Positions 12,166 through 46,360 of a stretch of DNA of 46,360 nt are shown piece by piece. The stretch covers positions 1 through 46,360 of the forward strand of contig JAICNB010000019.1 of NCBI GenBank assembly GCA_025928935.1, read 5' to 3'. Under the pieces are notes generated by a model, which did no database searches, was not told the origin of the DNA, and worked only from the letters and a program-made list of their open reading frames with translations. This stretch comes from Acidimicrobiia bacterium. GTDB taxonomy: Bacteria > Actinomycetota > Acidimicrobiia > Spongiisociales > ZC4RG35. The position numbers and the translations under genes were made by a program. Position 1 is the stretch's first letter, and every line of letters begins with the position of its first letter.

Positions 12166-13281
12166 TCAATAACCCCAGACATCGCGGGCCACCTCGACGG
12201 TGCGGGCCAGCTTCCGCCACTGGTCGTCGTGGTCGAGCTTGTTGCCGTGTGCCGTCGACGAGAAGCCGCACTGATGGCTGAGGGCGAGTTGGTCCAGGGG
12301 CACGTATTGCGCCGCCTCGTCGATTCGCTTCTTGACCTCGTCGGCATCTTCGACATCGGGCACCTTCGAGCTCATCAACCCGAGCACGACCGTCTTGTCT
12401 GCGGGCATGAAACGGAGCGGGGCGAAGTCGCCGGAGCGCTCGTCGTCGTACTCGAGGAAGAAGGCGTCCACATCCATCTCGTTGAACAGGATCTCCGCCA
12501 CCGGCTCATACCCGCCCTTGGTCACCCAGGCGCTCTGGAAGTTGCCCCGGCAGAGATGGACCGCGGCCACCATGTCATCGGGGCGCCCGGCGAAGGCATC
12601 GGTGATCAGACGGCTGTAGAGCCGGGTCAGGTCGTCGGGGTCGTCGCCCCGGGCGGCGGTCCGCTCCCGCACCTCGGGGTCACAGAGATAGGCGAGGTTG
12701 GTGTCGTCCATCTGGATGTACCGGGCCCCACGCGAGGCCAGGTCGGCGATCTCGTCCCGATAGGCCGCGGTGAGGTCGTCGAAGAACTGGTCCAGGTCGG
12801 GGTAGACCTCCTCGCTGATCCCCTGACGTCCACCACGGAAATGCAGCATGGACGGGGCCGGGATCGACACCTTGGGGGTCCTGGTCACCTGCGATGCGAG
12901 GTAATCGAAATCCGCCCCTTGGATGGGCCGGGCATGACGGATCGGGCCGTCCACGCCCATGGTCGGTGGCGAGAACTCGATCTCGGACCCGTCGAGACGG
13001 TGGAATCTGGCCAGGAAATTGCCCTCCGTCACGGTCACACCGTCGAGCTGCTCGAGGAAGTCGACGTGGAACATGAAGCGGCGGAACTCGCCATCGGTGA
13101 TGCCCCTGAGCCCGACGTCCTCCTGCTGACGCACGACCTCGGCGATCGCCTCGTCCTCGACCTCTCTCAGCTCCTCCGGGCCGATGTCACCCTCGGCTCG
13201 CTGGGCCCGAGCGTCGACCACGGTCTTGGGCCGCAGGAAGCTGCCCACGTGGTCTGCCCGGAATGGTGGTCGATCGGTCAT
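12166..13281 (-). CDS. MetE C-terminal-domain-like methyltransferase (cobalamin-independent methionine synthase family)
   Basis: The 371-residue TIM-barrel protein belongs to the stand-alone MetE C-terminal family (YxjG/YxjH-like), which transfers methyl groups to thiols using zinc. Candidate zinc ligands are the His and Cys of VHLCRGNF and the Cys of SHQCGFSS near the C-terminus. The opening FRADHVGSFLRP and the MDDTNLAYLCDP segment are typical. The start at 13281 has AAGGAGA seven bases upstream. It lacks the N-terminal MetE half, so it may not use methyl-THF-polyglutamate as full MetE does. Its place inside an aromatic block, next to a SAM methyltransferase, suggests methyl transfer connected to aromatic or thiol substrates; the true acceptor is unknown. 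Confidence 0.82.
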   Translation of the reverse strand: MTDRPPFRADHVGSFLRPKTVVDARAQRAEGDIGPEELREVEDEAIAEVVRQQEDVGLRGITDGEFRRFMFHVDFLEQLDGVTVTEGNFLARFHRLDGSEIEFSPPTMGVDGPIRHARPIQGADFDYLASQVTRTPKVSIPAPSMLHFRGGRQGISEEVYPDLDQFFDDLTAAYRDEIADLASRGARYIQMDDTNLAYLCDPEVRERTAARGDDPDDLTRLYSRLITDAFAGRPDDMVAAVHLCRGNFQSAWVTKGGYEPVAEILFNEMDVDAFFLEYDDERSGDFAPLRFMPADKTVVLGLMSSKVPDVEDADEVKKRIDEAAQYVPLDQLALSHQCGFSSTAHGNKLDHDDQWRKLARTVEVARDVWGY

Positions 13282-13334
13282 GTGATCTCCTTTTTCAACG
13301 GCCATCCGCAGCGTAGGCCGACACGAGCGCCCGG

Positions 13335-14477
13335 TCAGGCCGGGGCTATCGGCGGGCCGGCACGCGTTATCACGAAGGCCTCGTCGTTGAACCACACCCC
13401 CTCGTACTGCTGGATGATCCTTCTCGTCGCCGGGACATACCGACCCGAGCTCAGGGCCTCCGAGAGTCGTTCTTCGTCGATCTGGGCGACATACGCCGCT
13501 GCATTCCATGCGGCGACGATGAGCGAGGTGCCGATGTGCTCCTGGACGTCGGACGGCATGGCGTGGAGCTGATAGCGGATGATGGCTTCCTCGTCGGTGA
13601 TGGGTTCGAAAGACAGCTCGTCGTCACCCGGTTCGACGAAGTGGTCCCGGGCCGCGTCGGCCAGGACATGTCGGTTGGTCTGGAACGGGTCTTCATCGGG
13701 CCACACGCCGCGAATGATCTCGAGACCCGGATCGTTCCCGTGGGAGTGGACCACGACCATCCGTCCCCTCGGGGCCAGGGCTCTGGCCAGGGGAGCCACG
13801 ACCGTGCTCATCTTCTGATCGACCGATGTCCGGGCGCGATAGGGCTGTGATGCGATGATCAGCTGGTAGCCCGAGCCGAGCGGCGTCTCTGGCTTGGGGA
13901 TGATGTCGCTCAGGATGAACTCCCGGTCCCTTCGGTAGAGGACCAAGACCGACGGTCGGACATAGACCGGGTTCCCGGTCTTCTCGCTGGTCCGAACCGC
14001 CCAGTCGTCGACGAGCGACGGATAGAGGTCCCTGATCTGGCGGGAGAAGTCGAAGGCCGTCGACCCCTCGAGAGGCACTGTGGTCCAGCTCAGCGCAGCT
14101 CTGGCCTCATCTCGCATGGGCACGAGGTGGGGCGCTTCCCGGTACGACATGTTGGTGACGACGAAGACCATCTCCGGGTGCTCGAGTAGCCGGTCGGCCA
14201 CCTTGTCCAGCGAGAGCCGCACGTCCTCGAGGCTGATCTCCTTGCCGACGATCAGCCACGGGATGTGGGTGAAGGCACGATGGAGACGGCGCATGAGCTC
14301 GGTGAGGACCGTCGCGTCCCCCATCCCCGCGTCGAGGACCTGGAGGGCCTTCTCGCCGGGTGCGATCTTGTCCAGCTCCTCCCCGATTCGACCTGCTACC
14401 ACCGGCTTCTCGTTGGTGGCCGTGCTGAAGAGCAGGTAGGCAGCGCGGGAGTCGAAGAAACGGCCGACCTGGGTCAC
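13335..14477 (-). CDS. SAM-dependent methyltransferase-like protein of unknown substrate
   Basis: The 380-residue protein has a class I methyltransferase-like core: motif I is VLDAGMGDATVL near residues 48-60, with following strands IVGKEIS and FVVTNMSYREAP. A second half with SDIIPKPETPLGSGYQLIIASQPY and RGRMVVVHSHGNDPG does not match a family I recognise. The GTG at 14477 overlaps the dioxygenase stop as GTGA, so it is translationally coupled to the catechol dioxygenase. The MetE-like gene is 53 bases downstream on the same strand. A role in methylating or demethylating an aromatic intermediate is conceivable but unproven; the fold call is moderate and the function open. Confidence 0.65.
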   Translation of the reverse strand: MTQVGRFFDSRAAYLLFSTATNEKPVVAGRIGEELDKIAPGEKALQVLDAGMGDATVLTELMRRLHRAFTHIPWLIVGKEISLEDVRLSLDKVADRLLEHPEMVFVVTNMSYREAPHLVPMRDEARAALSWTTVPLEGSTAFDFSRQIRDLYPSLVDDWAVRTSEKTGNPVYVRPSVLVLYRRDREFILSDIIPKPETPLGSGYQLIIASQPYRARTSVDQKMSTVVAPLARALAPRGRMVVVHSHGNDPGLEIIRGVWPDEDPFQTNRHVLADAARDHFVEPGDDELSFEPITDEEAIIRYQLHAMPSDVQEHIGTSLIVAAWNAAAYVAQIDEERLSEALSSGRYVPATRRIIQQYEGVWFNDEAFVITRAGPPIAPA

Positions 14478-34296: not shown

Positions 34297-35739
34297 TCAA
34301 TCGCCGATATATGACATGACGTGCTTGATCCGGGTGTAATCGTGCAGGGCGTAGATGGAGAGATCCTTGCCGTACCCGGACTGCTTGAACCCACCGTGCG
34401 GCATCTCGGCCACCAGCGGGATGTGGGTGTTTATCCACACCGCCCCGTAGTCGAGGTACTTCGCCATGCGCATGGCGCGGCCGTGGTCCTTGGTCCATAC
34501 ACTCGAGGCCAGGCCGTACTTCACGCCGTTGGCCCATTCGAGCGCCTCCGCCTCGTCGTCGAAGCGCTGCACCGTGATGACCGGCCCGAAGATCTCCTCC
34601 TGGCTCATCTCGTCGTCCTGGGTGAGCCCGCTGAGCACGGTCGGCTCGAAGAACCAGCCCGAGCGATCCACACGGCTCCCGCCCACGACCACATCTACAT
34701 GGTCCGGGGCCCGCTCCAGGAGCCCTCTCACCCGCTCAAGTTGACTCGGGTTGTTGAGGGGCCCGTAATACGTCGCGTCGTCGTGGGGATCGCCGGTAGT
34801 CGTGTCCCTGGCTCGCTCGGCGAGGGCGGCGACGAAGTCATCGTGAACGTGGCTTCCGGCCAGCACCCGGGTGGCCGCCGTGCAGTCCTGACCGGCGTTG
34901 TAGTAGCCGGCGCCCGCGATGCCCTCGGCGGCCGCTTCGACGTCTGCATCGTCGAAGACGATCACCGGCGCCTTGCCACCGAGCTCGAGATGAACACGTT
35001 TCAGGTCCTCCGACGCGGCTGCCGCCACTTCTCTCCCGGCGCGAATGCTGCCGGTCACCGACACCAGGGCAGGTATCGGATGCGAGACCAGGGCGCGGCC
35101 GGTGTCACGATCTCCGGTGACGACATTGAGGACCCCGGGCGGCAGGTACTCGGCGGCGAGCTCGGCGAGCTTCAGGGTCGAGGCCGGAGTCGTGTCGGAC
35201 GGCTTGAGCACGACTGTGTTACCGGCCGCGAGAGCGGGTGCGAACTTCCAGACCGCCATCATGAGCGGATAGTTCCACGGCGCAACCTGGGCACAGACCC
35301 CCAGGGGCTCGCGTCGGATGATGGAGGTATGCTCGGCCAAGTATTCCCCCGCCGACAGCCCTTCCAGGTGACGGGCCGCTCCGGCGAAGAACCGGATCTG
35401 GTCCACGGCAGGGGGCAGCTCGTCGGACAACGCGAGCCCGTACGGCTTCCCGGTGTTCTCCACCTCGATCCGGGTCAACTCCTCGGCATTGGCTTCCAAT
35501 GCGTCGGCGATGCGAAGAAGGGCGAGGCTGCGCTCCGAAGGAGTGGCATCTCGCCAACCCGGGAATGCCTCGGCCGCCGCCCGGCAGGCGGCATCCACAT
35601 CCGCCGCGGTCGACAGTGGCGCCGTGGCGTATTCCGCCTCGGTGGCCGGGTCTACCACCGCCATCGTCTTGCCTTCGAGAGCCGGGCGGTGGTCGCCACC
35701 ATAGAAGTTGGCCAAGGTCCTCGTCGCGGTCTGGGTCAT
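34297..35739 (-). CDS. Aldehyde dehydrogenase, aminobutyraldehyde/betaine-aldehyde type
   Basis: The 480-residue NAD-dependent enzyme has [22 protein letters not shown], the catalytic Glu in HLELGGKAP and the catalytic Cys in [15 protein letters not shown], a variant typical of gamma-aminobutyraldehyde dehydrogenases (PatD/YdcW). C-terminal [14 protein letters not shown] is as expected. ATG 35739 has GGGAGA eight bases upstream. It might oxidise 4-aminobutanal or betaine aldehyde; the latter would connect it with the methylated-amine cluster at 37.7-46.4 kb, but this is only a suggestion. BoxD is unlikely because those enzymes are of another subgroup. Confidence 0.87.
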
Positions 35740-35750
35740 CACACATCTCC

Positions 35751-35783
35751 CGATCCGAGCGGCCCCGCCACGATACCGAGCGG
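35751..35783. promoter_or_regulatory. Direct repeat upstream of the aldehyde dehydrogenase gene
   Basis: CGATCCGAGCGG (35751-35762) and CGATACCGAGCGG (35771-35783) are near-identical and start 20 bases apart, about two helical turns. The second overlaps an imperfect dyad CCGA-N4-TCGG similar in style to the boxC operator. It is a candidate regulator-binding region. Confidence 0.35.
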
Positions 35784-35801
35784 TCGGATCGGCCGGGTGG
35801 G

Positions 35802-37133
35802 CTATGCCACCCGGAAGATCTCCCACTCCCCGGGAACCCCTTTGAGGACGTGACGGCCCAAGGGGTCGAATTCGAACCGAGAGCCGATGACCATGTCCCG
35901 AACGGTCTGGGACACGACGACCTGTCCCGGGGAGGCCAGGGCGGCGACACGGGCGCCGATGTGCACCGCCATGCCTACCACGTCGTTGGCCTCGAACACG
36001 ATCTCGCCACTGTGAAGGCCCACTCTCACCTCGAGACCTGCCTGGCGGCTGGCCTCACAAAGGGCCAGCGCACACTGGATGGCAGAAGTCGGGCCATCGA
36101 AGACGATCAGGAACCCGTCGCCTGCGGTGCTCATCTCCCGACCCCCGTACCGGGCGAGAAGACGACGCGCCTCGGCGCGGTGGGTCTCGAGGAGCCCACT
36201 CCACGCCCGATCGCCGACACTGGCCGCCCGCTCGGTCGACCCGACGACATCACTGAAGAGAACGGTGGCCACGCGGCGATCGACCGCCGCTCCGACCCGG
36301 GTACCCAGGAGGAACTCCTCCACCTCGTCCATCAGCCGGTCCACATCTCCCAGAAATCCGGGCGTCTCGTCCCCGGGCACCTCGACATATCTCGCCTGCT
36401 CCAGTTGGCCCGCCATCCAGCGCATTCCCTGGGCGGGGATCAAGGATGAGTCTTTGCGATGGAGGAGGAGGGTCGGAGCCGCCACCCTCGGCAGCAAGGG
36501 TCGGATGTCGATGGCCACACTCCTCCGAAGCAAGTTGGCTGCCATGCTCGGCGTGGCCGACATCCGCTCCAGCTTGCGCCACCAGCCGGCGATCCTCTCG
36601 TCATCGGCCACGGAAGGCGCGACCAGAGGCAGCAAGATCCCCTGGCCCCACAATCCATCCTCGATCACATCGGCGATCGCGCCTATCGGCACCGGGTCCA
36701 GGGCCCAGGGGTGTTCGTCATCGGCTGTCGAGCTTGCAAGGACCTCACCCAGAACGAGAGCGCTGACCCGATCGGGATGGCGGGCGGCCACGGTGACCGC
36801 AATCGCCGCCGCGTCTACCCATCCGACGATGGCAGCTCTCTCCATCCCCACTGCATCCATCACTGCCAGGGCGTCGGGGACCATCTCCTCGGTGTTCCCG
36901 ACATGCGGGGGGCGGTCGGAGAGGCCCAGGCCCCGCTTGTCGAACAAGGCCACCCGGCCCATGCCGGCGAGACGCTCGATGAAACGACGACACTCGGCCA
37001 GCTCCCAAAGGACTTCGAGATGTGAGACCCAGCCGATCATGGCGAGGATGTCGATTGGGCCCTCGCCGACCACCTGGTAAGCCAGGTCGACATCCCCGGA
37101 CCGGGTGAACCTGACCTCCGGCACGTTGGTCAC
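35802..37133 (-). CDS. Alpha/beta-hydrolase-like domain fused to class III adenylate/guanylate cyclase
   Basis: The 443-residue protein has an N-terminal alpha/beta-hydrolase-like domain (1-275) and a C-terminal class III cyclase (about 285-443), the arrangement of mycobacterial Rv1900c. The cyclase metal aspartates are Asp295 (FSDVVGST) and Asp339 ([11 protein letters not shown]); the VHIGAR segment at 390-395 has His where many cyclases have Asn. The hydrolase triad looks lost: GWVDA at 104-108 puts Val106 at the nucleophile, and the C-terminal PGDETPGF lacks the His. So the first domain is probably a ligand sensor controlling cyclic nucleotide synthesis. The start is a GTG at 37133. Confidence 0.88.
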
Positions 37134-37232
37134 GAGGGGCGAGGTTACTGCCGCCGTGTGATCCGACCGCTCGCCAGCAAGCGCTCGAATCGAGGACTTT
37201 GCGCGGGATAGGCTTGAGCGAAGGTTCGGTTC

Positions 37233-37715
37233 ATGTCCGTCACACTCTCATCGAGCGGCACTCGGGGGGTCACCATCCCCGGTTTCGCCAAACCACTCAT
37301 GGCTGTGGGGATGGGTATCAGCCATCTTGCCTTCGGGCTGCTCGGGGACCGCATGAAGATTCAGGGCCGGCCCCTTCTCGAGCTGACCACCGTAGGAGCC
37401 AGGACGGGCAAGAGACGGCGGGTCATCCTCGCCTGGTTCGACGATCCGGCAAACCCGGGAGCGCGGATCATCGTCGGGTCCAACGGAGGAGCGACCCGGC
37501 ACCCCGGATGGTGCCACAACCTGGCGCACAACCCGGATAAGGCCTGGATCGAGGTCGGTGGAGAGGAGATCAAGGTCAGGCCCGACTCGCTACACGACGG
37601 GGAGAGAGCGGCCCACTGGGCCCGGATCGTGGCGCTCGCTCCCGGATACGGCGGCTACACCGAGAAGACCGATCGGGAGATCCCCGTCATCCGGCTCACG
37701 CCGGTCGATGGCTAG
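37233..37715 (+). CDS. Deazaflavin (F420)-dependent nitroreductase/quinone reductase, DDN family
   Basis: The 160-residue split-barrel protein matches the DDN/DUF385 family. It contains GRPLLELTTVGARTGKRR, GSNGGATRHPGWCHNLAHNP and the C-terminal YTEKTDREIPVIRLTPV. Members use F420H2 to reduce quinones or nitro compounds and may protect membranes from oxidative stress. GAAGG lies eight bases before the ATG. It is divergent from the cyclase gene (about 100 bases) and ends in a CTAG shared with the convergent DmdA-like gene. It is one of the better hints of an actinobacterium. Confidence 0.9.
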   Translation: MSVTLSSSGTRGVTIPGFAKPLMAVGMGISHLAFGLLGDRMKIQGRPLLELTTVGARTGKRRRVILAWFDDPANPGARIIVGSNGGATRHPGWCHNLAHNPDKAWIEVGGEEIKVRPDSLHDGERAAHWARIVALAPGYGGYTEKTDREIPVIRLTPVDG

Positions 37716-38893
37716 GTCGCATTCAGGCTGCGAGCCGGCTCCTTCTTCTGGGGATCGACGAACGGGATCGAGGCGGCCACGGCGACGAGCTCCTCCCCGT
37801 CCTCGTTGATCACATCCACCCGCGATCCGGGCTCGGCCAGCTCTATGGGAACCCACATGTACCCGATGTTCTGCTCCATTCCGGGCGACCACACTGCGTC
37901 GGTTACCCGGCCCACCTCGCCGCCGCTCGACAGGACGGGCCACGGCTGCGAGAGCTCGGCCCTGAGCTGGTCACCCTCGATGACCATCCCCACCAGCTTG
38001 CGGTCGACGCCGGTTTCCCGAAGACGCTCCAGCGAGCCCTTGCCCAGGTAGTCCTGCTCCTGGGGCTCCACCAGGCGCTCCATCCCCGTGATGTGGAATG
38101 GCGTGTCGTCGAGTGTCATGTCCGACCCGTAGTTGAAGATGCCGGCTTCGATCCTCCGCGCCTCACAGGGTGCTATCGGCCGAATGTCGAACTCCTCCCC
38201 AGCTCGGGCCACCGCATCCCAGAGGGCGGCACCGTCACGTCGGTCGAGCACGTTGATCTCGAAGCCGGGGATGGCGGTCCAGCCCGTCCGGCTGATGACG
38301 ACTGGGATCCCATTGACCTCGAACTCACCCAGCCAGTAGTACTTGATGTCGTACACGGCGGGGCCGACCAGCTTCTCCAGGGTCTTCGCCGCCAGCGGGC
38401 CCTGTACCTGCATCGGGTGGACGTCGGGCAGGGTCACATCGACATCGAACCGTCCTGCAGCCACACCCAGGGCGTAGAGCCCGGCATCCGAGTCCGCCAG
38501 CTGCATCCACCACTTGTCGACGGCTACATGCAGGAGCACCGGGTCGTTGACGATCCCGCCGTCGGGTGCGATGACCGGCATGTACTTGCCCTGACCCACC
38601 GCACACTTGGTGAGGTCGCGACAGGTGATGAAATCGATGAGACGGTCGGCGTCCGGGCCGCTCACCTCGACGGTCCGCTCCACCCCCACGTCCCACATCG
38701 TCACCCCATTGACCAGGGCCCAGTATTCGACATCGGGGTCGTCGTAGTAGGCGGGCAGGTACATGTGGTTGTAGATGTCGTAGGAGGTGCATCCGGCCGC
38801 CAGGGTCGACTCGAAGAAGGGCGATCGCCGATACCACGGCCCGAAGTAGAGGGTGGTGCTCCTCTCCAGCATCTCGCTTCGCTCGTTGGCCAC
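37712..38893 (-). CDS. GcvT/DmdA-like tetrahydrofolate-dependent demethylase
   Basis: The 393-residue protein belongs to the glycine-cleavage T-protein family. Several segments recall DMSP demethylase DmdA more than GcvT: YDIYNHMYLPAYY, MWDVGVERTVEVSG, CRDLTKCAVGQGKYMPV and GGIVNDPVLL. The C-terminal beta-barrel domain is complete. The enzyme should move a methyl or aminomethyl group to tetrahydrofolate; the substrate may be DMSP, a methylated amine or a methoxy-aromatic acid (LigM and DesA are relatives). GTG 38893 is chosen because GGAGGAG lies six bases upstream. The MetF-like and corrinoid methyltransferase genes lie upstream on the same strand. Confidence 0.82.
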   Translation of the reverse strand: MANERSEMLERSTTLYFGPWYRRSPFFESTLAAGCTSYDIYNHMYLPAYYDDPDVEYWALVNGVTMWDVGVERTVEVSGPDADRLIDFITCRDLTKCAVGQGKYMPVIAPDGGIVNDPVLLHVAVDKWWMQLADSDAGLYALGVAAGRFDVDVTLPDVHPMQVQGPLAAKTLEKLVGPAVYDIKYYWLGEFEVNGIPVVISRTGWTAIPGFEINVLDRRDGAALWDAVARAGEEFDIRPIAPCEARRIEAGIFNYGSDMTLDDTPFHITGMERLVEPQEQDYLGKGSLERLRETGVDRKLVGMVIEGDQLRAELSQPWPVLSSGGEVGRVTDAVWSPGMEQNIGYMWVPIELAEPGSRVDVINEDGEELVAVAASIPFVDPQKKEPARSLNAT

Positions 38894-38914
38894 GACCGTC
38901 TCCTCCTCGTTTAC

Positions 38915-38928
38915 TGAACCGTCGTTCA
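38915..38928. promoter_or_regulatory. Palindrome upstream of the DmdA-like gene
   Basis: TGAAC and GTTCA are perfect arms around CGTC, just after a TAAAGT -10-like element on the minus strand. It fits an operator, perhaps for the IclR protein encoded upstream. Confidence 0.35.
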
Positions 38929-38966
38929 ACTTTAGGGCAACGGCGGTGGGGCAACGGGGTGGGGGC

Positions 38967-39713
38967 TCAGGCGGTCTCGGTGCGGGCGGAGAAACGGCCC
39001 GCGGCGTCCATCACCACCGAGGCGATGGCATCGGCTCGGTCTTTGGCGGGGAATCTATAGGCGGGGCCGTGGACATGGATGGCCCCGAGGGCTCCCCGCC
39101 CGTCGGCGAGGACGGGAGCAGCAACCGAGTTGATCCCCTCGGCGAACTCCTCGTGCACCCAACAATGGCCCTCCTCGCGGACCGTCTCCAACCGCGCCTC
39201 GATCCGCCCGGGGTCGACCAAGGTGTTGGAGGTGTAGGCCTCCAACGGGCGGCTCAGATAGCGCCCGACCTCCTCTTTGGGCCATTGCGCCATGACACAG
39301 AGGCCCGACGGCCCCACGTGCATCGGCACCATGAGACCGGTGTAGTCCCGGACTTGCACCGGATTGGGGCTCTCCACCTGGACCATGTACTGGATGACGT
39401 ATCCGGTGGGCACGCTGAACCCCGCAGCCTCGCCGAGCTGGTCGGAGAGCCAGACGAGATGAGGGCGGACGGCAGTGGCGAGGGCAGCCGTGGCGTCGAC
39501 CGCCCCGGCCAGCTCCACCAGGCCCATGCCAATCGAGTACACCGCACCGTCTTCGGCGCGGGCCACGGCCCCCTGCTCCTCCAGGCTGGAAAGCATGCGA
39601 GACACCGTCGACTTGGGAAGACCGACCCGTTGCGCCAGGTCGGTCACCCCGGACGGCTCGATCGCCAGGGCCTTGAGGACCTGGAAGGCGCGGTCGATCG
39701 ACTGAACAGTCAT
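38967..39713 (-). CDS. IclR-family transcriptional regulator
   Basis: The 248-residue protein has the IclR winged helix (SIDRAFQVLKALA, then TDLAQRVGLPKSTVSRMLSSLEEQG) and the effector domain with EEFAEGINSVAAPVLADGRGALGAIHVHGP. The ATG at 39713 overlaps the MetF-like stop as ATGA, so the regulator is made from the mttB-metF transcript. It is the natural candidate to bind the inverted repeat at the mttB promoter. IclR proteins usually sense small carboxylic or aromatic acids. Confidence 0.92.
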   Translation of the reverse strand: MTVQSIDRAFQVLKALAIEPSGVTDLAQRVGLPKSTVSRMLSSLEEQGAVARAEDGAVYSIGMGLVELAGAVDATAALATAVRPHLVWLSDQLGEAAGFSVPTGYVIQYMVQVESPNPVQVRDYTGLMVPMHVGPSGLCVMAQWPKEEVGRYLSRPLEAYTSNTLVDPGRIEARLETVREEGHCWVHEEFAEGINSVAAPVLADGRGALGAIHVHGPAYRFPAKDRADAIASVVMDAAGRFSARTETA

Positions 39714-40543
39714 AGTCCCGCTCTCTGCTTGGCCCGTCGGTGCCATTTCACGGTCGCCTCGACCTGGTTGAAGGTGAACAAGTGCATCCCCTCGAAGCCG
39801 AGGTCGCTGCCGATCCGAGCCAGCTTCCTGATCAACCGGTCCGGGTGATATCGGCCGGGCCTGACCAGGCGAAGGATCCCACCCCGGTTCTTGGCGAGAT
39901 AACGCATCGACTCGCCCACCCCGATCCGTGCCCCTATCGAGAGGAGACGGGTGGGTTCGACCGCGCCAGGCACGCCGACCCTAATCGGCAGGGCGACGCC
40001 ATTCGCCCTCAGCTCAGCGGCCCACCGGGCGATCGTCTCCGGCTCGAAGCACATCTGGGTGACGAGGTAGGTGGCGTGGGGTTGCTTGGCGAGCAGCGCT
40101 CGATGCAGGGTCTCTGCCGGTATAACGGGATGACCCTCCGGGTACCCCGCGATGCCGACTTCGAGGAAGGGATGGCCGACGCCCGCCATGTCCTCGATGA
40201 GTGAGAGAGCATCGTGATAGTCCCCATGTGGCGGCCCATCCCCCCCGACAACGAACACCTGACCCACACCGGCATCGTCCAAGCGCTTGATGATCGAGCT
40301 GAGCTCACGGCGGTCCTCGACCAGGCGCGCTGCGAGATGGGGGACGGTCCGGTAACCCTTCGCCTGCAGCTCGACGACGACGTCGATGGTGGGATCCATG
40401 CCCCGGGTCGGAGAGGCAGTCACCGAGACGGTCGCACCCACGGGGATGCCCTCCGCCTTCTCGACGACTCCGGGGAGAGGGATGACCTCGAAGTCGGCGA
40501 CGGTGAGGAGCCTTCTCTCCAGGGTGTCGGCGGGATCAGACAT
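39710..40543 (-). CDS. metF: Methylenetetrahydrofolate reductase-like protein
   Basis: The 277-residue TIM-barrel protein resembles MetF: VSVTASPTRGMDPTIDVVVELQAKGYRTVPHLAARLV, the VFVVGGDGPPHGDY flavin loop and the VTQMCFEPETIARW strand. In biosynthesis MetF makes methyl-THF, but in methylotrophic clusters it runs in the oxidative direction, methyl-THF to methylene-THF. It overlaps mttB by eight bases and iclR by ATGA, so all three are coupled. This strongly suggests the catabolic direction here, though that is inferred. Confidence 0.87.
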   Translation of the reverse strand: MSDPADTLERRLLTVADFEVIPLPGVVEKAEGIPVGATVSVTASPTRGMDPTIDVVVELQAKGYRTVPHLAARLVEDRRELSSIIKRLDDAGVGQVFVVGGDGPPHGDYHDALSLIEDMAGVGHPFLEVGIAGYPEGHPVIPAETLHRALLAKQPHATYLVTQMCFEPETIARWAAELRANGVALPIRVGVPGAVEPTRLLSIGARIGVGESMRYLAKNRGGILRLVRPGRYHPDRLIRKLARIGSDLGFEGMHLFTFNQVEATVKWHRRAKQRAGL

Positions 40544-42074
40544 CGGAATCGGGGAAGGAGGCCTTGCGCCGATCGACCCATTCGGTGAGCTCTGCGTCGA
40601 CGGCATCGACCAACGGCGGCGGCTCATACTCGGCCAAGGTGCGCTTCCACGAGTCGTGGGCCCGAGCGACTGACTCGTTGGAACCTGCCTCCTGCCACTG
40701 CTCGAAGCTGGAGTTGTCGGCCATCGAGCTGCGCCAGAAGGCGGTCTCGAAGTTGGCAAGGGTGTGAGCATTCCCAAGGAAGTGCTGGCCCGGGGGGTTG
40801 TCGAGAAGCGCGTCGAGGGCCTGACCGTTCTCAGTCAGATCTACACCGGAGAGCATCGGGCCGGCCATCGAGGCCTGATCGGCATCCAGCACGAACTTCT
40901 CGTATCCCATCACGAGGCCTCCCTCGAGCCATCCTGCGGTGTGAAGGACGAAATTCACCCCGGCGAGCAGGGTGGGGAAGAAGGTCGCCGCCGACTCGTA
41001 TGCAGACTGGAAGTCCGGGGTCTTCGCTGCCGTCAGGTTGCCACCGCTCCGGAAGGGGACTCCGAGACGACGGGCCAGGGCTGCCATCACGAAGAGCACC
41101 AGCGCAGGCTCGGGCGTCCCGAAGGTCGGCGCCCCCGACTGCATGGAAATGGACGAGGCGAAGGAGCCGAACACCACCGGGGCGCCGGGCCGGACCATCT
41201 GGCAGAACGCCATCCCCGCCATCGCCTCCGCCAGCGTCTGTGTGGCCGTGCCCGCCACGGTCACCGGCGCCATGGCCCCGGAGAGGATGAAGGGTGTGAT
41301 CAGACACGCCTGGTTGTTCTCGGCGTAGACCTTGGCCGAGCCGAGCATGTTCCGGTCCCAGCTCATCGGGCTGTTGGCGTTGCACAACGAGAGCAGCACG
41401 GTCTTGCCGGCGTCGATTTCGGGCCCGAACAGGACCCTGACCATGTCCACCGTGTCCTGGGCCCGCTCCGGAGCGGTCACCGATCCCATGAACGGCTTGT
41501 CGTGGAGCCGGATGTGGCTCATGACCATGTCGAAGTGCCGTTTGTTCACCGGCAGGTCGACCGGCTCGCACAGGGTGCCACCGCCGTGGTGGAGCGACGG
41601 GGTCATGTGGGTGAGACGGGCGAAGTTCTCGAAATCGGCGAGGGTGGCGTAGCGACGCCCGCCCTCGAGGTCGCGCACGAAGGGCGACCCGTAGGCCGGG
41701 GCGAAGACCACATTGGGGTCCCCGATCACCACGTCGTGAGCCGGGTTCCTGGCGTGCTGGGTGAAGGTCGCCGGCGCGCCGGCGATCAGGCTCCGGGCCA
41801 GGCCCTTGGGGAACCGCACCCTGGTCTCGGTGACGTCGCAACCCCCGTCCCGGAAGATGTCCAGCGCCTCGGGGAAGTCGATCACCTCCACACCGACCTG
41901 GTCCAACAGCGTGTCGGCATTGGCCTCGATCATTGACAGGCCTTCCTCCCCAAGCACCTCGACCGGCGCCAGGTTCCGGGTCAGGAACGGGACCGATTCG
42001 ATCGACCGTGCGGTCCGCGCCGCCTGCCGGGCAGCCCTCCCGCCGCCACGACGCCCGCTGCTGCTCTGTTCCAT
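40536..42074 (-). CDS. mttB: Non-pyrrolysine MttB-family corrinoid methyltransferase
   Basis: The 512-residue protein is a trimethylamine/betaine:corrinoid methyltransferase homologue. The N-terminus RRGGGRAARQAAR, the EANADTLLDQVGVEVIDFPEAL segment, HHGGGTLCEP and FGTPEPALVLFVMAALARRLGVPFRSGG are family-like. The frame is open throughout, so no amber codon for pyrrolysine is used; this subgroup demethylates betaines such as glycine betaine or carnitine. The ATG at 42074 is chosen over 42116 because the extra residues are not family-like; it has no ribosome site and lies in the right arm of a 13-bp inverted repeat. The substrate is unknown. Confidence 0.88.
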   Translation of the reverse strand: MEQSSSGRRGGGRAARQAARTARSIESVPFLTRNLAPVEVLGEEGLSMIEANADTLLDQVGVEVIDFPEALDIFRDGGCDVTETRVRFPKGLARSLIAGAPATFTQHARNPAHDVVIGDPNVVFAPAYGSPFVRDLEGGRRYATLADFENFARLTHMTPSLHHGGGTLCEPVDLPVNKRHFDMVMSHIRLHDKPFMGSVTAPERAQDTVDMVRVLFGPEIDAGKTVLLSLCNANSPMSWDRNMLGSAKVYAENNQACLITPFILSGAMAPVTVAGTATQTLAEAMAGMAFCQMVRPGAPVVFGSFASSISMQSGAPTFGTPEPALVLFVMAALARRLGVPFRSGGNLTAAKTPDFQSAYESAATFFPTLLAGVNFVLHTAGWLEGGLVMGYEKFVLDADQASMAGPMLSGVDLTENGQALDALLDNPPGQHFLGNAHTLANFETAFWRSSMADNSSFEQWQEAGSNESVARAHDSWKRTLAEYEPPPLVDAVDAELTEWVDRRKASFPDSDV

Positions 42075-42104
42075 GATGCGGTACCAGACTACATCATGGA
42101 ACAG
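42066..42104. promoter_or_regulatory. Perfect 13-bp inverted repeat at the mttB promoter and start codon
   Basis: CTGTTCCATGATG (42066-42078) and CATCATGGAACAG (42092-42104) are perfect reverse complements with a 13-base spacer. The arms overlap the putative -10 and the mttB start codon. It is either an operator, with the IclR protein of the operon as prime candidate, or an mRNA hairpin that hides the AUG. Confidence 0.75.
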
Positions 42105-42121
42105 GCGTCGGAGCATGGCAA
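42093..42121 (-). promoter_or_regulatory. Putative mttB promoter
   Basis: On the minus strand TTGCCA (42121-42116) and CATGAT (42098-42093) are 17 bases apart. The -10 lies in one arm of the inverted repeat, so a bound repressor would exclude polymerase. The leader would be about 12 bases. Confidence 0.4.
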
Positions 42122-42125
42122 TCGG

Positions 42126-42178
42126 TTCTTCCGCGCCGTCCTCGACCTATAGGGTGATATCGGTGCGCGAAAACGGGT
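42126..42178. repeat. Dispersed 53-bp palindromic element, copy B (upstream of mttB)
   Basis: This aligns gaplessly with 21357-21409 at 42 of 53 positions; both ends are nearly identical (TTCTT, CGCGCCGT and TCGACCT at left, GCGCGAAAACGGGT at right). In the same register CGCGCCG pairs with CGGTGCG (one G-T), and CCTATAGG forms the centre, so the dyad is kept although the middle bases changed. It lies between the activator gene and mttB. Confidence 0.65.
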
Positions 42179-42185
42179 GGATCAT
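42147..42185 (-). CDS. Possible 12-codon leader ORF between the activator gene and mttB
   Basis: The ATG at 42185 overlaps the activator stop as ATGA, and GGAGG lies eight bases upstream. The peptide would be MIHPFSRTDITL, ending in TAG. It overlaps copy B of the palindromic element. Size alone makes it doubtful; it could be a coupling or leader peptide, or chance. Confidence 0.2.
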   Translation of the reverse strand: MIHPFSRTDITL

Positions 42186-44131
42186 CCCCGTCGCCTCCGT
42201 CTCTGTCCTGTTTCGACGCGGGCGGGCATATCGACCACCTTGGACAGCTCGGGGTAGGGCTCGGTCTTGTGGGGGATGGCGAGGGCGGCGACGAAGTGCT
42301 CCTGGAAGCGGGGCTCGATCGCGGTCTCCACCTTCTCGATCCGTCCGGCTACGTCTTCGATCTCATTCCGCGCCTCGGCGGAGAGGAGGGCCATCATCGC
42401 TCCCACCCCGGCAGCGTTACCGGCGGCCGAGACATGCTCCAGATCGCAGTCCGGGATCATCCCGAGGACCATGGCGTACCTGGGGTCGATATGACTCCCG
42501 AAAGCGCCGGCCAGCCTGATCTCGTCGACATGCTCGACCCCGTAGTGATCCATGAGGAGACGGGCCCCGGCGTGAAGAGCCGCCTTGGCCAATTGCACCG
42601 CCCGCACATCGTTCTGGGTGATCTCGACCCTTGGCTCGACGGAGAGGACGTAGGAGAAGGTCCGCTCCGAGGGCACCACCCAGGGTGACCCGCCGGCCGG
42701 ATCCCGGATGACACCATCGCCATCGATCACTCCGGCCAAGAAGAGCTCGGCGATGGCCTCGATGATGCCCGAGCCGCAGATGCCGGTCACCGCCCCGAAG
42801 TCGAACCCGACGTCGTTCGACCAGCCTTCCTGGCCGATGACCGAGAAGCGTGGTTCCAGCGTCGACCGGTCGACACGAACCCGTTCGATGGCGCCCGGTG
42901 CCGCCCGCTGGCCAGATGAGATCTGCGCTCCCTCGAAAGCGGGGCCGGTAGGGCTGGAAGCAGCGAGCAGCCGCTCCCGATTGCCCAGCACCAGCTCTGC
43001 GTTGGTCCCCACGTCGACCAGGAGCTGGAGGGCGGCCCCTCGATGTGGGCCCTCCGAGAGCACCACACCGCAGGCGTCGGCCCCGACATGGCCGGCGATG
43101 GAGGGAAGCGAGTAGACGGTTGCCCCGGGATGGGCCCTCATACCCAGGTCGCGGGCGCGGGTGTCGAGGGCCGATGTTGTGACCAGCGCGAATGGAGCGG
43201 TGCCCAACTCGCGGGGGTCGAGCCCGAGGGCCAGGTGGTGCATGATCGGGTTCCCCACGAGCGACAGCTCGAGGATGTCCTCCCGCGCCACTCCGGCCTC
43301 GGCTGCCAATTCTCCGATCAGCCCGTCGAGCGCCCCCCGCACCACCCCGGTGAGCCGCTCGGCGCCGTCGTCGTTCATCATCACGTACGACACTCTGCTC
43401 ATCAGGTCCTCGCCAAACCCGATCTGCGGGTTCATCATCCCGGAAGTCGCCAGCACCTCGCCCGATGTAAGGTCACAAAGGTGCCCGGCGATGGTGGTGG
43501 ACCCGACATCGAAGGCGACGCCCAGGGCCACGTCGCGGAAGCCGGGCCAGATCCCGACCAGGTCCCGCTGGTGGCGGACCGCAGCCGTCACCGTCCAATC
43601 ACCCTGACGAAGGGCGCTCTGGAGACCGGAGAGCACCGGTGGGTCGACGAGCAGCCCTTCGAGCCCCCACTCCTTCTCGAGAGCCGCCAGCAACCGCTCC
43701 AGGTCACCCGTCGGGCTGGCCAGGTCGGGCTCAGCCACATCGACGTAATGGAGCCGCACCACCGGATCGACCGGCAGTGCGCTGACCCCCGCCCTCTTGC
43801 GCACGACCTGGCGATGGACCTGGCTCTCCGGAGGGACGTCGATGACGACGTCCTCGACGATCTCGGCGGCGCAGCCGAGCCGGTGGCCGGGGGCCAGCGG
43901 CCGGCGCGCCTGATAGTCGGTCTCGGTCGGGCCGGGCTCGGAGAGTCGGTCGGGGCGAGCCTCTATTCCGGGCCGGCTGCCGATCATCACCTGGCACCGC
44001 CCACAGATCCCGCGCCCACCACACACGGAGTCGAGATCGACACCCAGAGCCCGGGCGGCATCCAGCACGGTGGTCCCCTGGGCAAACGATCCACGGCGCC
44101 CTGACGGGCTGAACACCACCTGGCGAGTCAT
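42182..44131 (-). CDS. RACo-type reductive activator of corrinoid proteins (ASKHA ATPase with 2Fe-2S domain)
   Basis: The 649-residue protein has an N-terminal plant-type 2Fe-2S ferredoxin domain with Cys37, Cys43, Cys46 and Cys87, a linker and middle domain, then the ASKHA nucleotide-binding part: AFDVGSTTIAGHLCDL, SLVGNPIMHHLALG, LLVDVGTNAELVLGN and the C-terminal RLAGAFGSHIDPRYA. RACo proteins use ATP to reduce accidentally oxidised Co(II) corrinoid back to Co(I). It follows the methyl-THF methyltransferase by six bases. The Arg-rich C-terminus is probably lineage-specific. Confidence 0.92.
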   Translation of the reverse strand: MTRQVVFSPSGRRGSFAQGTTVLDAARALGVDLDSVCGGRGICGRCQVMIGSRPGIEARPDRLSEPGPTETDYQARRPLAPGHRLGCAAEIVEDVVIDVPPESQVHRQVVRKRAGVSALPVDPVVRLHYVDVAEPDLASPTGDLERLLAALEKEWGLEGLLVDPPVLSGLQSALRQGDWTVTAAVRHQRDLVGIWPGFRDVALGVAFDVGSTTIAGHLCDLTSGEVLATSGMMNPQIGFGEDLMSRVSYVMMNDDGAERLTGVVRGALDGLIGELAAEAGVAREDILELSLVGNPIMHHLALGLDPRELGTAPFALVTTSALDTRARDLGMRAHPGATVYSLPSIAGHVGADACGVVLSEGPHRGAALQLLVDVGTNAELVLGNRERLLAASSPTGPAFEGAQISSGQRAAPGAIERVRVDRSTLEPRFSVIGQEGWSNDVGFDFGAVTGICGSGIIEAIAELFLAGVIDGDGVIRDPAGGSPWVVPSERTFSYVLSVEPRVEITQNDVRAVQLAKAALHAGARLLMDHYGVEHVDEIRLAGAFGSHIDPRYAMVLGMIPDCDLEHVSAAGNAAGVGAMMALLSAEARNEIEDVAGRIEKVETAIEPRFQEHFVAALAIPHKTEPYPELSKVVDMPARVETGQRRRRRG

Positions 44132-44137
44132 GGCGCC

Positions 44138-45034
44138 TCAGCCGCGCCGGCGGCGATTCTCACGGCGACGACCCTCTTCCCCGGTGGCGGGAGGCTCCCG
44201 GTAGGTCTTGATCCAGGTGACACAGTTCGGGTCGCGGCCGTTGAGGACGTCCGATGCCAAGATCGCCTGGCGGATCTCTGGCTCGAGTGGGTTGGTGATG
44301 GCCGAGGTCATCCCGGCGGCCATGGCCATGGAGAGGAAGGCCGCGTTGATCCCGGCGCGGTTGGGCAGGCCGAAGCTGATGTTGGAGGCCCCACAGGTGG
44401 TGTTCACCCCGAGCTCATCGCGCAGCCGGCGGATCAGATGGAAGACCTGTCTCCCTGCGGTCCCCATGGCCCCGATCGGCATGACGAGCGGGTCGACCAC
44501 CACATCCGAAGCCGGGATGTCGTGATCGGCGGCCCGGCTCACGATCTTCTTCGCCACTTCGAAGCGGACGTCGGGGTCTTCGGAGATTCCCGTCTCGTCG
44601 TTGGATATCGCCACCACCGCAGCACCGTGTCTGGCCACCAAGGGGAGCACCTGCTCGAGACGTTCCTCTTCGCCTGTGACCGAGTTGACCAGGGCTTTGC
44701 CCTTGTAGACCGAGAGGCCTGCCTCCAGCGCGACGACGATGGAGGAATCGATCGAAAGCGGGACGTCGGTGAGTGACTGCACCAACTCGATGGCCTTGGC
44801 GAGCAGGGCAGGCTCGTCGGCGAGGGGGATGCCCGCGTTGACGTCGAGCATCTGTGCCCCTGCTCCGACCTGAGCCATCGCATCCTGTTGGACCCGGGAG
44901 AAGTCCCCACCTTTCATCTCCTCTGCGAGCAGCCGGCGGCCGGTCGGGTTGATCCGCTCCCCGATCAAGACGAAGGGCCGCTCGAACCCGATCACCACCT
45001 CCCGCGTCTCCGAGGAGACGACCGTGTCGGTCAT
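44138..45034 (-). CDS. Methyltetrahydrofolate:corrinoid methyltransferase (AcsE/MtvA-like, pterin-binding)
   Basis: The 298-residue TIM-barrel protein has the pterin-binding signature FVLIGERINPTGRR, the MLDVNAGIP segment, PLSIDSS, KALVNSVTGEE and TTCGASNISFGLPNR, all typical of methyl-THF:corrinoid protein methyltransferases such as AcsE and MtgA. It would transfer the methyl group from methyl-cobalamin to THF in the catabolic direction. The ATG at 45034 overlaps the upstream small gene as ATGA. The Arg-rich C-terminus resembles that of the activator next to it. Confidence 0.92.
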   Translation of the reverse strand: MTDTVVSSETREVVIGFERPFVLIGERINPTGRRLLAEEMKGGDFSRVQQDAMAQVGAGAQMLDVNAGIPLADEPALLAKAIELVQSLTDVPLSIDSSIVVALEAGLSVYKGKALVNSVTGEEERLEQVLPLVARHGAAVVAISNDETGISEDPDVRFEVAKKIVSRAADHDIPASDVVVDPLVMPIGAMGTAGRQVFHLIRRLRDELGVNTTCGASNISFGLPNRAGINAAFLSMAMAAGMTSAITNPLEPEIRQAILASDVLNGRDPNCVTWIKTYREPPATGEEGRRRENRRRRG

Positions 45035-45342
45035 CGCGACCCGCCGTTGGCGGCTACTTCGTTGAGCGTGTCCGGGTCGAACTCCGATTCGAGCCTCGAG
45101 GCCTCGGCCGACACCTCTGCCTCCAGGTCATCACCACAGACGCGGGTGTCGCGGGCCCACTCCGCCAGATACTCGTCGGTGCCGAACAGTCCTGCGTACA
45201 TCGCGGCACGGTCGATCGCAACCTGGAACCGGGCCGACAACTCGCGTTTGGCCGAATCGCCCCCGCTGCGGGCGATCACCTGTGCCGGGATGTCCCGCCA
45301 GCGGATGACGGTCAGCCGCGGCCCGGTGCTCCGAGGGCTCAT
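45031..45342 (-). CDS. Small 'virulence factor' domain protein (PF13769-like)
   Basis: The 103-residue protein starts at the ATG at 45342, overlapping the DUF1638 stop as ATGA. It contains LTVIRWRDIPAQVIARSG, ELSARFQVAIDRAAMYAGLFGTDEYLAEW, which match the pattern I remember for PF13769. The family name is misleading; no biochemical role is known to me. Its position, coupled on both sides to DUF1638 and the methyltransferase, suggests an accessory function in corrinoid-dependent methyl transfer. A longer reading frame upstream is DUF1638 in another frame. Confidence 0.75.
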   Translation of the reverse strand: MSPRSTGPRLTVIRWRDIPAQVIARSGGDSAKRELSARFQVAIDRAAMYAGLFGTDEYLAEWARDTRVCGDDLEAEVSAEASRLESEFDPDTLNEVAANGGSR

Positions 45343-45944
45343 GCCACCACTCCCTGCGTCACCTCGACCAGCGTCGTCGCCAGATCGCCGTAGCCGACGT
45401 GTCTGTGCTCGAACTCGAGGCCGAGCCGAGCCGACGCATCCCTCGCCACCTCGATCATGGCCTCCGATTCGACCTGGGATAGGTAGACGAGGCGCCGGTA
45501 GTTCCCGAAGTAGTCGTCGCGGAGCTCCGGCCAGCGGTCGAGGCCGAGACCGGACCAGACCAGTCGGTCGAAGTGACGGGTGAGGAAATCCGTCAGGTAG
45601 AAGGTCCCCGGCTCTCTCCCGTGGAGGGCGGCGAAGCGGGGACCGGTGGCATAGAACTCGTAGCAGTGCGCCCCGGGGAGACGCTGGATCCCCCGTTTCT
45701 CCAGCACCCGGTCGAGCAGTCCGCCCGTCCCGCAGTCCGCATATGCGACGAAGACCGATCGATAGCGCCCCTCGGCGGCATCGAGACGCCCCTCGACCGC
45801 GGCCGGGATCGAATCCGGCGTGTTGTGGAGGATGGCCGGGAGGCATTCGACGTCGACCCGGTCGAAGGCGCTCATGTCGATCACATCCCTGATCTCTCGG
45901 GCCAGCGCCCCACAGGCGATGACCAGGAGCCGGGATTCGGTCAT
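45339..45944 (-). CDS. DUF1638-domain protein
   Basis: The 201-residue protein opens with LLVIACGALAREI and carries VFVAYADCGTGGLLD and GAHCYEFYATGPRF, conserved Cys/His-containing features of DUF1638. The Cys and His residues could bind a metal or the corrinoid. It overlaps the corrinoid protein stop (ATGA) and the next small gene (ATGA). DUF1638 genes commonly sit beside MttB-type methyltransferases, but their function is unknown. Confidence 0.82.
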   Translation of the reverse strand: MTESRLLVIACGALAREIRDVIDMSAFDRVDVECLPAILHNTPDSIPAAVEGRLDAAEGRYRSVFVAYADCGTGGLLDRVLEKRGIQRLPGAHCYEFYATGPRFAALHGREPGTFYLTDFLTRHFDRLVWSGLGLDRWPELRDDYFGNYRRLVYLSQVESEAMIEVARDASARLGLEFEHRHVGYGDLATTLVEVTQGVVA

Positions 45945-46360
45945 GGCGCCTCGCCGGAGGTGAGACGGCGGGCCAGCACCAGGGCCTCGGCGGTCTCGGT
46001 GGCCACCGCCGCATCACGACAATATGCGTCGGCCCCGACCGCGACGCCGAACTCCTCGTTGAGCGGGGCGCCCCCGACCAGCACGATGTAGTCCTCCCGG
46101 ATCCCCTTCTCCTTCAGCGCCTCGATGACCACCTTCATGTAGGGCATGGTGGTCGTGAGCAGAGCGGACATCCCGAGGATGTCGGGTTTGTGCTCATCGA
46201 GGGCAGCGATGAACTCGTCGGCATCGGTGTTGATCCCGAGGTTCACCACCTCGAAACCGGCGCCCTCCAGCATCATCGCCACCAGGTTCTTGCCGATGTC
46301 GTGAATGTCGCCCTTGACGGTCCCGATCACCACCTTGCCGATGGTCTCGGCCCCGGTCTC
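45941..46360 (-). CDS. Corrinoid (methyl-carrier) protein, C-terminal part (cut by window edge)
   Basis: The visible 139 residues are the B12-binding Rossmann domain. It contains GDIHDIGKN (D-x-H-x-x-G, His as lower cobalt ligand), MSALLTTTM for the SxL motif and VLVGGAPLN for the GG motif. The N-terminal helical cap lies beyond base 46360. It should shuttle the methyl group between MttB, the methyl-THF methyltransferase and, when oxidised, the activator. Frame is open to the edge, so the true start is outside the window. Confidence 0.93.
   Translation of the reverse strand, partial: ETGAETIGKVVIGTVKGDIHDIGKNLVAMMLEGAGFEVVNLGINTDADEFIAALDEHKPDILGMSALLTTTMPYMKVVIEALKEKGIREDYIVLVGGAPLNEEFGVAVGADAYCRDAAVATETAEALVLARRLTSGEAP

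What the first reader, a model, noticed from the sequence alone, without database searches (positions are those of the whole stretch)
37712..46360. Corrinoid C1 cluster pairing an MttB-type methyltransferase with a DmdA-like demethylase and MetF
On one strand lie the corrinoid carrier, DUF1638, PF13769-like protein, methyl-THF:corrinoid methyltransferase, RACo activator, non-Pyl MttB, MetF-like, IclR and a DmdA/GcvT-like enzyme. The first seven catabolic genes are almost all joined by ATGA or short overlaps. The set is sufficient to take a methyl group to cobalamin, pass it to THF and oxidise it. Such systems are best known from anaerobes; here they sit in a genome with oxygen-dependent BoxB and an extradiol dioxygenase. 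Two independent THF-linked demethylases side by side is unusual and suggests a substrate with several methyl groups, removed by different chemistries.
Basis: partly seen in the sequence, partly recalled or inferred. Interest (0 to 1): 0.75.

Follow-up and report, generated by a model that had tools for sequence, protein, structure and literature searches.

The report
Aerobic glycine betaine demethylation operon
An uncultured, apparently actinobacterial genome carries a vitamin-B12-dependent operon that most likely strips methyl groups from the common salt-protectant glycine betaine, a known kind of pathway, with one extra demethylase-like gene beside it whose substrate is unknown.

Summary
The cluster is real. 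On the minus strand lie a corrinoid carrier (cut by the contig end), DUF1638, PF13769, a pterin methyltransferase, RACo, a non-pyrrolysine MttB, a MetF-like protein, IclR and a DmdA-like GcvT protein. Contig C35 of the same genome overlaps the window's right end and adds a dimethylglycine-dehydrogenase-like enzyme with ETF, a betaine/choline-type ABC transporter and a betaine-homocysteine-methyltransferase homologue; a close relative carries the junction in one piece. The substrate is therefore most likely glycine betaine, by the aerobic MtgBCD/MetF2 route published in 2025 for Ruegeria pomeroyi (PMC12478193). In 138 genomes of the order, 42 of 44 with this DMGDH also have the MttB orthologue; BoxB, a control, shows no association. 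'Several methyl groups, different chemistries' fits, but the best-supported second demethylase is DMGDH, outside the window. The DmdA-like protein is not DmdA proper: it lies outside the DMSP-demethylase clade and under the curated cut-off. It closes the operon in 3 of 3 genomes of this genus; all 17 genomes of the order with such a protein have the mttB orthologue, so it probably feeds the same C1 route. Its substrate is unknown. The main system is a new member of a known kind.

The parts
45941..46360 (-). corrinoid carrier protein (MtgC/MtbC type), 3' part; 5' part lies on contig C35 of the same genome
   Evidence: PF02310 104 bits; best NCBIfam NF047996 MtgC, 147 bits; DIHDIG, SALLT and GG motifs; overlap with C35
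45339..45944 (-). DUF1638 protein, probable corrinoid-reactivation partner
   Evidence: PF07796 92 bits; role proposed from fitness data in P. inhibens (PMC5764234, passages)
45031..45345 (-). PF13769 protein ('virulence factor' by name only), role unknown, conserved in the operon
   Evidence: 68 bits; found in 31 of 80 related loci
44138..45034 (-). methyl-corrinoid:THF methyltransferase (MtgD-like)
   Evidence: PF00809 95 bits; NF005719 364 bits, cut-off 259
42182..44131 (-). RACo/RamA-type corrinoid activator with [2Fe-2S] motif
   Evidence: PF14574 292 bits; CX5CX2C motif
40536..42116 (-). non-pyrrolysine MttB-superfamily methyltransferase, probable glycine betaine:corrinoid methyltransferase (MtgB)
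   Evidence: PF06253 706 bits, no stop inside; tree and pocket residues
39710..40543 (-). divergent MetF-like protein (MetF2 role, methyl-THF oxidation)
   Evidence: PF02219 47 bits; best PDB 7xg9 111 bits; a second, weaker MTHFR-like match lies beside MetH
38967..39746 (-). IclR-family regulator
   Evidence: PF01614 93 bits, PF09339 60 bits
37712..38929 (-). DmdA-like stand-alone GcvT-fold protein, substrate unknown; likely start GTG at 38893
   Evidence: PRK12486 312 bits, below cut-off 410; own clade outside DmdA; dN 0.04, dS 1.5 against L002

Best explanation
The operon and its continuation on contig C35 form an aerobic glycine betaine (GB) catabolic unit. A ProVWX-type transporter imports GB. 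MttB (=MtgB) moves one methyl to cob(I)alamin on the carrier (MtgC), leaving dimethylglycine. MtgD passes the methyl to THF. RACo, helped by DUF1638, re-reduces oxidised cobalamin. The MetF-like protein runs towards methylene-THF, which is oxidised to formate. The divergent DMGDH-like enzyme with its own ETF removes the next methyl (perhaps also that of sarcosine) as methylene-THF. The DmdA-like protein is probably a corrinoid-free demethylase of another osmolyte that feeds methyl-THF into the same MetF step. Shown: gene content, order, conservation, co-occurrence, pocket residues. Inferred: substrate, direction of flux, and the role of every protein, above all the DmdA-like one.
For: Domains and order. 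C35 continues the window: 218 bp overlap at 94%, and L002 spans the junction in one piece at about 90% nucleotide identity. C35 carries a DMGDH-like protein (best PDB N,N-dimethylglycine oxidase, 504 bits), ETF, a double permease (choline permease model 479 bits, cut-off 363; ProW 442, cut-off 439), ProV (350, cut-off 327) and a BHMT homologue (371, cut-off 338). Of 44 genomes of the order with the DMGDH orthologue, 42 have the MttB orthologue (base 44 of 138; genera 17 of 18, base 18 of 61); 33 of the 34 genomes with both on one contig have them within 15 kb; the BoxB control shows no association. Residues proposed for GB binding in D. hafniense MtgB (Y94, N199, R309, H345; PMC6855144) are kept in the window MttB and in 29 of 30 rows of its clade; 0 of 14 distinct rows outside it, MtgB itself apart, keep all four. 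In aerobic R. pomeroyi mtgC and mtgD are required for growth on GB, and MtgB homologues, MetF2, RamA and DUF1638 proteins rise on it (PMC12478193).
Against: No activity data. F353 of MtgB is G here and in 29 of 30 clade rows (A in one). Many genomes of the order carry several MttB-family genes (up to 6), so this family takes more than one substrate; this genome has one. The R. pomeroyi system usually replaces MetH, but this genome has a full MetH. A BHMT homologue on C35 could itself take methyl from GB: for P. inhibens Bmt one paper reports direct methionine formation from DMSP and betaine (PMC12366255, passages), the other argues against it (PMC12478193). The first 95 bp of C35 match neither the window nor L002 and the overlap is only 94%, so strain mixing or misassembly at the tip is possible. 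No separate sarcosine-demethylating GcvT fusion was found (4 GCV_T matches). PurU is below its cut-off; FTHFS is present.
Confidence: 0.83

Rival explanations
1. The MttB acts mainly on another betaine (carnitine, proline betaine, gamma-butyrobetaine or choline) and GB is secondary.
For: MttB-superfamily members differ in substrate (PMC12478193 lists several); F353 of MtgB is G here.
Against: DMGDH and ETF divergently next to the operon and a betaine/choline-type transporter; the four proposed GB residues are kept, while most paralogues lose Y94.
Confidence: 0.12
2. The DmdA-like protein is a DMSP (or other sulfonium osmolyte) demethylase, so the cluster handles an N-osmolyte and an S-osmolyte through one MetF.
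For: Best PDB match is DmdA 3tfh, 215 bits; W197, S126 and E204 of DmdA kept; relatives at about 41% sit in a dmdBCD-like operon (Marivivens) or with OsmC, enoyl-CoA hydratase and acyl-CoA synthetase.
Against: Outside the DmdA clade (100/99), on a long stem; Y206 is N, the SKQGG stretch is TAIPG; below the curated cut-off; none of the genes identified between 34297 and 46360 is an acyl-CoA ligase, acyl-CoA dehydrogenase or enoyl-CoA hydratase. The Marivivens protein falls in the DmdA-side clade, not with the window.
Confidence: 0.4
3. The DmdA-like protein is the THF-binding partner for sarcosine or another amine oxidised by a separate enzyme (GcvT-like role, methylene-THF product).
For: The third methyl of GB has no assigned enzyme here; GcvT-fold domains do this in DMGDH and sarcosine oxidase (established knowledge).
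Against: It resembles DmdA far more than GcvT or SoxA; no amine oxidase was identified beside it in the window.
Confidence: 0.2
4. The DmdA-like gene is a chance neighbour of the operon with an unrelated role.
For: It stands at the operon's end only in genus g1 among the 80 loci and 138 genomes examined; own probable start and ribosome-binding site; in G113, home of the nearest relative, 3 of the 12 other ORFs around it were Pfam-scanned and none is a C1 gene, nor did any match the C1 proteins used as BLAST queries.
Against: At the operon's end in 3 of 3 genus genomes, under purifying selection; 17 of 17 genomes of the order with such a protein have the MttB orthologue (p=3e-10; genera 12 of 12, p=1e-8), and 3 further genomes have both within 12-24 kb; L012 and L029 have one 4.5 and 3.6 kb from MttB.
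Confidence: 0.25

Closest known systems
Aerobic MtgBCD / MetF2 glycine betaine demethylation of Ruegeria pomeroyi (PMC12478193)
   Same: Separate MtgB, MtgC, MtgD, RamA-like, DUF1638, MetF2 and MtgE/Bhmt-like genes; aerobic lifestyle; DMG-demethylation genes
   Different: Here one operon in an apparently acidimicrobial genome (in R. pomeroyi the genes are scattered); MetH is present, so the module is probably catabolic only; DmdA-like gene appended
Sinorhizobium meliloti mtg cluster (4yyc is the best PDB match of MttB; its species is recalled, not from a call)
   Same: MttB in the same clade (653 bits); MetH and RamA-like/DUF1638 proteins both present (PMC5764234)
   Different: Other phylum; cobalamin biosynthesis genes in the cluster (PMC12478193); gene order there not examined by me
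Desulfitobacterium hafniense MtgB (2qne, 9yce)
   Same: Probable chemistry and four pocket residues
   Different: Anaerobe; about 390 bits; outside the window clade; F353 not kept; its THF methyltransferase MtgA was not compared
DmdA, DMSP demethylase (3tfh and plasmid-borne DmdA)
   Same: Fold family and length, W197/S126/E204; methyl-THF product if the mechanism is shared
   Different: Separate clade, Y206N, SKQGG lost; 35-36% identity to plasmid DmdA

Membership tests
MtgBCD-type aerobic glycine betaine demethylase | non-pyrrolysine PF06253 methyltransferase | tested here: met
   706 bits, frame open without stop
MtgBCD-type aerobic glycine betaine demethylase | GB pocket residues Y94, N199, R309, H345 | tested here: met
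   all four kept; F353 not kept. These residues come from docking (PMC6855144, passages)
MtgBCD-type aerobic glycine betaine demethylase | corrinoid carrier, pterin methyltransferase, RamA-like activator, DUF1638, MetF2 | tested here: met
   the MetF-like protein is divergent (47 bits)
MtgBCD-type aerobic glycine betaine demethylase | carrier passes NCBIfam MtgC cut-off (370 or 310 bits) | tested here: inconclusive
   gene split over two contigs; parts score 147 and 162 bits against the 370-bit model
MtgBCD-type aerobic glycine betaine demethylase | DMG demethylation genes and betaine uptake nearby (frequent, not universal) | tested here: met
   C35 and L002
MtgBCD-type aerobic glycine betaine demethylase | replaces MetH in methionine synthesis (typical, not universal) | tested here: not met
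   MetH with reactivation domain on C124; MtgE/Bhmt-like gene present on C35
MtgBCD-type aerobic glycine betaine demethylase | methyl transfer from GB to cob(I)alamin | not testable with these tools
   needs purified protein
Trimethylamine methyltransferase MttB (Pyl) | in-frame amber codon and TIGR02369 score over 525 | tested here: not met
   256 bits, no stop inside
DmdA DMSP demethylase | PRK12486 score over 410 bits | tested here: not met
   312 bits
DmdA DMSP demethylase | falls in the clade of known DmdA | tested here: not met
   13-row clade with DmdA (100/99) excludes it
DmdA DMSP demethylase | DMSP tryptophan W197 and folate residues (W171, E178, Y180 in PMC7487153 alignment numbers, mapped by me) | tested here: inconclusive
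   W197 and E204 kept, Y206 is N; three plasmid DmdA have Y at W197 themselves
DmdA DMSP demethylase | dmdB, dmdC, dmdD next to it (not in all DmdA holders) | tested here: not met
   neighbours are IclR and a deazaflavin-type reductase
LigM/DesA O-demethylase | NCBIfam LigM 580 or DesA 800 bits | tested here: not met
   44 and 49 bits
Glycine cleavage GcvT | PRK00389 score over 300 | tested here: not met
   142.5 bits; other GCV_T proteins exist in the genome

The most novel reading that the evidence does not exclude
The genus-specific DmdA-like protein founds a new class of corrinoid-free THF methyltransferases that take a methyl directly from a quaternary ammonium osmolyte (N-methyl, not S-methyl), giving the cell a B12-independent bypass of its own MtgB step in the same operon.
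Probability: 0.08. Interest if true: 0.7.

Novelty: new member of a known kind. Interest (0 to 1): 0.36.

Why it matters
It places the recently described aerobic B12-dependent glycine betaine route in an actinobacterial order, with uptake, two demethylation chemistries and methyl oxidation in one island, in a genome that keeps MetH and so does not need the module for methionine. It also points to an uncharacterised DmdA-like group that, in the order searched, occurs only in genomes with this route: a concrete target for assay.

Tried and rejected
AlphaFold model of the DmdA-like protein from a five-row alignment: mean pLDDT 55.9, discarded, no fold search run. BoxB as partner of the C1 cluster: rejected by the co-occurrence control. 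LigM/DesA-like O-demethylase: rejected. A paper search for MetF relatives of 7xg9 listed 8 of 167 papers, none of use by title and abstract. Loci L182 and L183 were fetched and not analysed.

Limits of the counts: the 80 loci are the best 80 of 110, found with patterns from the window's own MttB, and many are cut short; a gene counts as present at 25% identity or more. The GcvT tree (44 rows) left out L094 (frame broken at my ORF step), L031 and duplicates. For the MttB tree I named 29 of the 80 loci, 12 paralogue stretches and 2 plasmid loci; two of them (L023, L067) are missing from the rows, by my length filters, and one plasmid protein entered twice. That tree used the quick method with SH-aLRT only. 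For one search I transcribed the tables by hand. The cut-offs (MttB 60% identity or more; DMGDH about 67% or more; GcvT-like E up to 4.7e-71) were set after seeing gaps in those tables; some entries are fragments (G025, G032, G109, and G119 for BoxB). Related genomes are not independent; the genus-level counts only soften this. A more distant GcvT-like family (about 30-36%, L106-L118) was not counted; it too occurs mostly in MttB genomes.
Full report
OBSERVATION. The window is the whole of contig C53 of a 3.08 Mb, 144-contig genome, 98.5% complete. From right to left on the minus strand run a corrinoid carrier, DUF1638, PF13769, a pterin methyltransferase, RACo, MttB, a MetF-like protein, IclR and a GcvT-fold protein. 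Junctions are -4, -7, -4, +6, +65, -8, -37 and +37 nt. The carrier is cut by the contig end. The best relatives of MttB are MAGs labelled Acidimicrobiia or Actinobacteria.

THE MISSING HALF. A search of the own genome for GCV_T domains found an 864-codon frame at the start of contig C35. C35 96-595 holds the 5' part of the carrier gene; C35 96-313 overlaps the window's right end over 218 bp at 94%, and L002, a close relative (MttB 95%), carries both sides in one contig. The first 95 bp of C35 match neither. On C35 follow, divergent from the carrier, a DMGDH-like FAD/GcvT fusion (best PDB match N,N-dimethylglycine oxidase, 504 bits), ETF beta and alpha, then an SDR, an aldehyde-dehydrogenase-like protein (its orthologue in L166 is 43% identical to the window's aldehyde dehydrogenase; not scanned itself), a double ProW-type permease, ProV, a betaine/choline-type binding protein (weak, 52 bits) and a betaine-homocysteine methyltransferase homologue (371 bits, cut-off 338). 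This is a gene set for uptake and stepwise demethylation of glycine betaine.

CONSERVATION. In 80 loci related by MttB, the five other core genes are all present in 22 (on MttB's strand in 17) and a DMGDH relative in 37. Across 138 genomes of the order, 44 have the MttB orthologue (60% or more) and 44 the DMGDH orthologue; 42 are shared (genera 17 of 18). Of the 34 genomes with both on one contig, 33 have them within 15 kb. BoxB, used as a control for 'large versatile genome', is not associated (10 of 31, p=0.56). So the aromatic genes of this contig and the C1 operon are most likely independent.

SUBSTRATE. The window MttB falls in a 30-row clade with 4yyc (PDB, 653 bits), apart from paralogues at 24-42% identity in the same order. 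Y94, N199, R309 and H345, proposed from docking for D. hafniense MtgB (PMC6855144, passages), are kept in 29 of 30 clade rows; among 14 distinct other rows besides MtgB none keeps all four, and Y94 is the one usually lost in the nearer paralogues. F353 is G in 29 of 30 clade rows and A in one.

MECHANISM. In R. pomeroyi, mtgC and mtgD mutants lose growth on glycine betaine, and MtgB homologues, MetF2, RamA and DUF1638 proteins rise on it; homologues occur in Alpha-, Gamma- and Deltaproteobacteria, and 5% of ocean mtgC reads were assigned to Actinomycetota (PMC12478193, parts 1-4 of 6 read, plus passages). The operon here fits that scheme protein by protein. A difference: this genome has MetH with its reactivation domain, and a weak second MTHFR-like match beside it, so the module is probably catabolic; Sinorhizobium meliloti likewise has RamA-like and DUF1638 proteins along with MetH (PMC5764234, passages). 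Whether the BHMT homologue draws methyl from the carrier (PMC12478193) or straight from betaine or DMSP, as reported for P. inhibens Bmt (PMC12366255, passages), is open. FTHFS is present, PurU not over its cut-off. How sarcosine is handled is not settled: four GCV_T proteins were found, none a sarcosine-oxidase alpha chain by length.

THE DmdA-LIKE GENE. It scores 312 bits to the DMSP demethylase model, cut-off 410, and far less to LigM, DesA and GcvT. In a tree of 44 rows it and the two genus-mates form one clade (100/100) on a stem of 0.89; the clade with known DmdA (3tfh, Phaeobacter, Marinovum, Antarctobacter; 13 rows, 100/99) excludes it, and its nearest neighbour is L092 of the same family (93/88, long branches meet there). 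It keeps W197, S126 and E204 of 3tfh; Y206 is N and the SKQGG stretch is TAIPG (residue roles after PMC7487153, passages, numbering mapped by me). W197 is weak evidence, because the three plasmid DmdA have Y there. The gene lies about 3 kb from mttB, behind metF and iclR, in 3 of 3 genus genomes and is under purifying selection (dN 0.04, dS 1.5 against L002; the L003 estimate failed). In the order, 17 of 17 genomes with such a protein have the MttB orthologue (12 of 12 genera); both lie within 24 kb in 6 of 17, three of them in this genus. In L012 and L029 one lies 4.5 and 3.6 kb from MttB, and in Phaeobacter sp. G2 one lies 2.3 kb from an MttB-family gene of another clade. Neighbours of relatives include FTHFS and NADH/formate-dehydrogenase-like subunits (G088), BHMT homologues (G133, G112), a BCCT transporter (L029), an Lrp-OsmC-hydratase-synthetase operon in Phaeobacter and Loktanella plasmids, a MTHFR/PurU/FolD group in Lichenihabitans, and a dmdBCD-like operon in Marivivens, the last within the DmdA-side clade. 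Against: in G113, home of the nearest relative, no C1 gene was seen beside it (3 of 12 other ORFs Pfam-scanned, all 12 compared with C1 query proteins). The most likely reading is a methyl-THF-forming osmolyte demethylase sharing the MetF step; which osmolyte is open.

NOVELTY. Searches for the system in Acidimicrobiia or Actinomycetota listed 12 of 77 and 12 of 106 papers. Among those listed, PMC12478193 is the close match. PMC10805028 (passages) reports expression of corrinoid methyltransferase genes of the mtxB kind by Actinobacteriota in a peatland, treated as anaerobic methylotrophy; PMC9999580 (passages) notes non-pyrrolysine mttB transcripts in a sponge microbiome. In what I saw, nothing described this operon in this order or a DmdA-like gene attached to it; unlisted papers and most subscription journals were not seen. 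Verdict: a new member of a known kind, with one uncharacterised addition.

Noticed in passing
window 12166-13509, minus: A short MetE-like methionine synthase (NF005085, 441 bits, cut-off 313) lies between boxC and the catechol dioxygenase genes, although the genome has MetH.
   Followed up: no
window 5077-6717, minus: Copper nitrite reductase-like protein with a C-terminal amicyanin-like domain, just under the NirK cut-off (282 against 296 bits).
   Followed up: no
window 45031-45345 and relatives: The PF13769 protein, named virulence factor, is a frequent member of the MtgBCD operon (31 of 80 loci); the word 'virulence' does not occur in the main text of two key papers, and I saw no role for it.
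   Followed up: partly
window 34297-37715: Deazaflavin-type reductase, LipJ-like cyclase and an aminobutyraldehyde-type dehydrogenase keep their order beside the DmdA-like gene in L003.
   Followed up: no
L149 9013-13111, L151 8980-13127, L159 5016-9102: Phaeobacter and Loktanella plasmids carry a GcvT-like/OsmC/enoyl-CoA hydratase/acyl-CoA synthetase operon outside the DmdA clade, perhaps a variant sulfonium route.
   Followed up: partly
L088 1-95: The tip of contig C35 matches neither the window nor L002; probably a chimeric or strain-variant end.
   Followed up: partly
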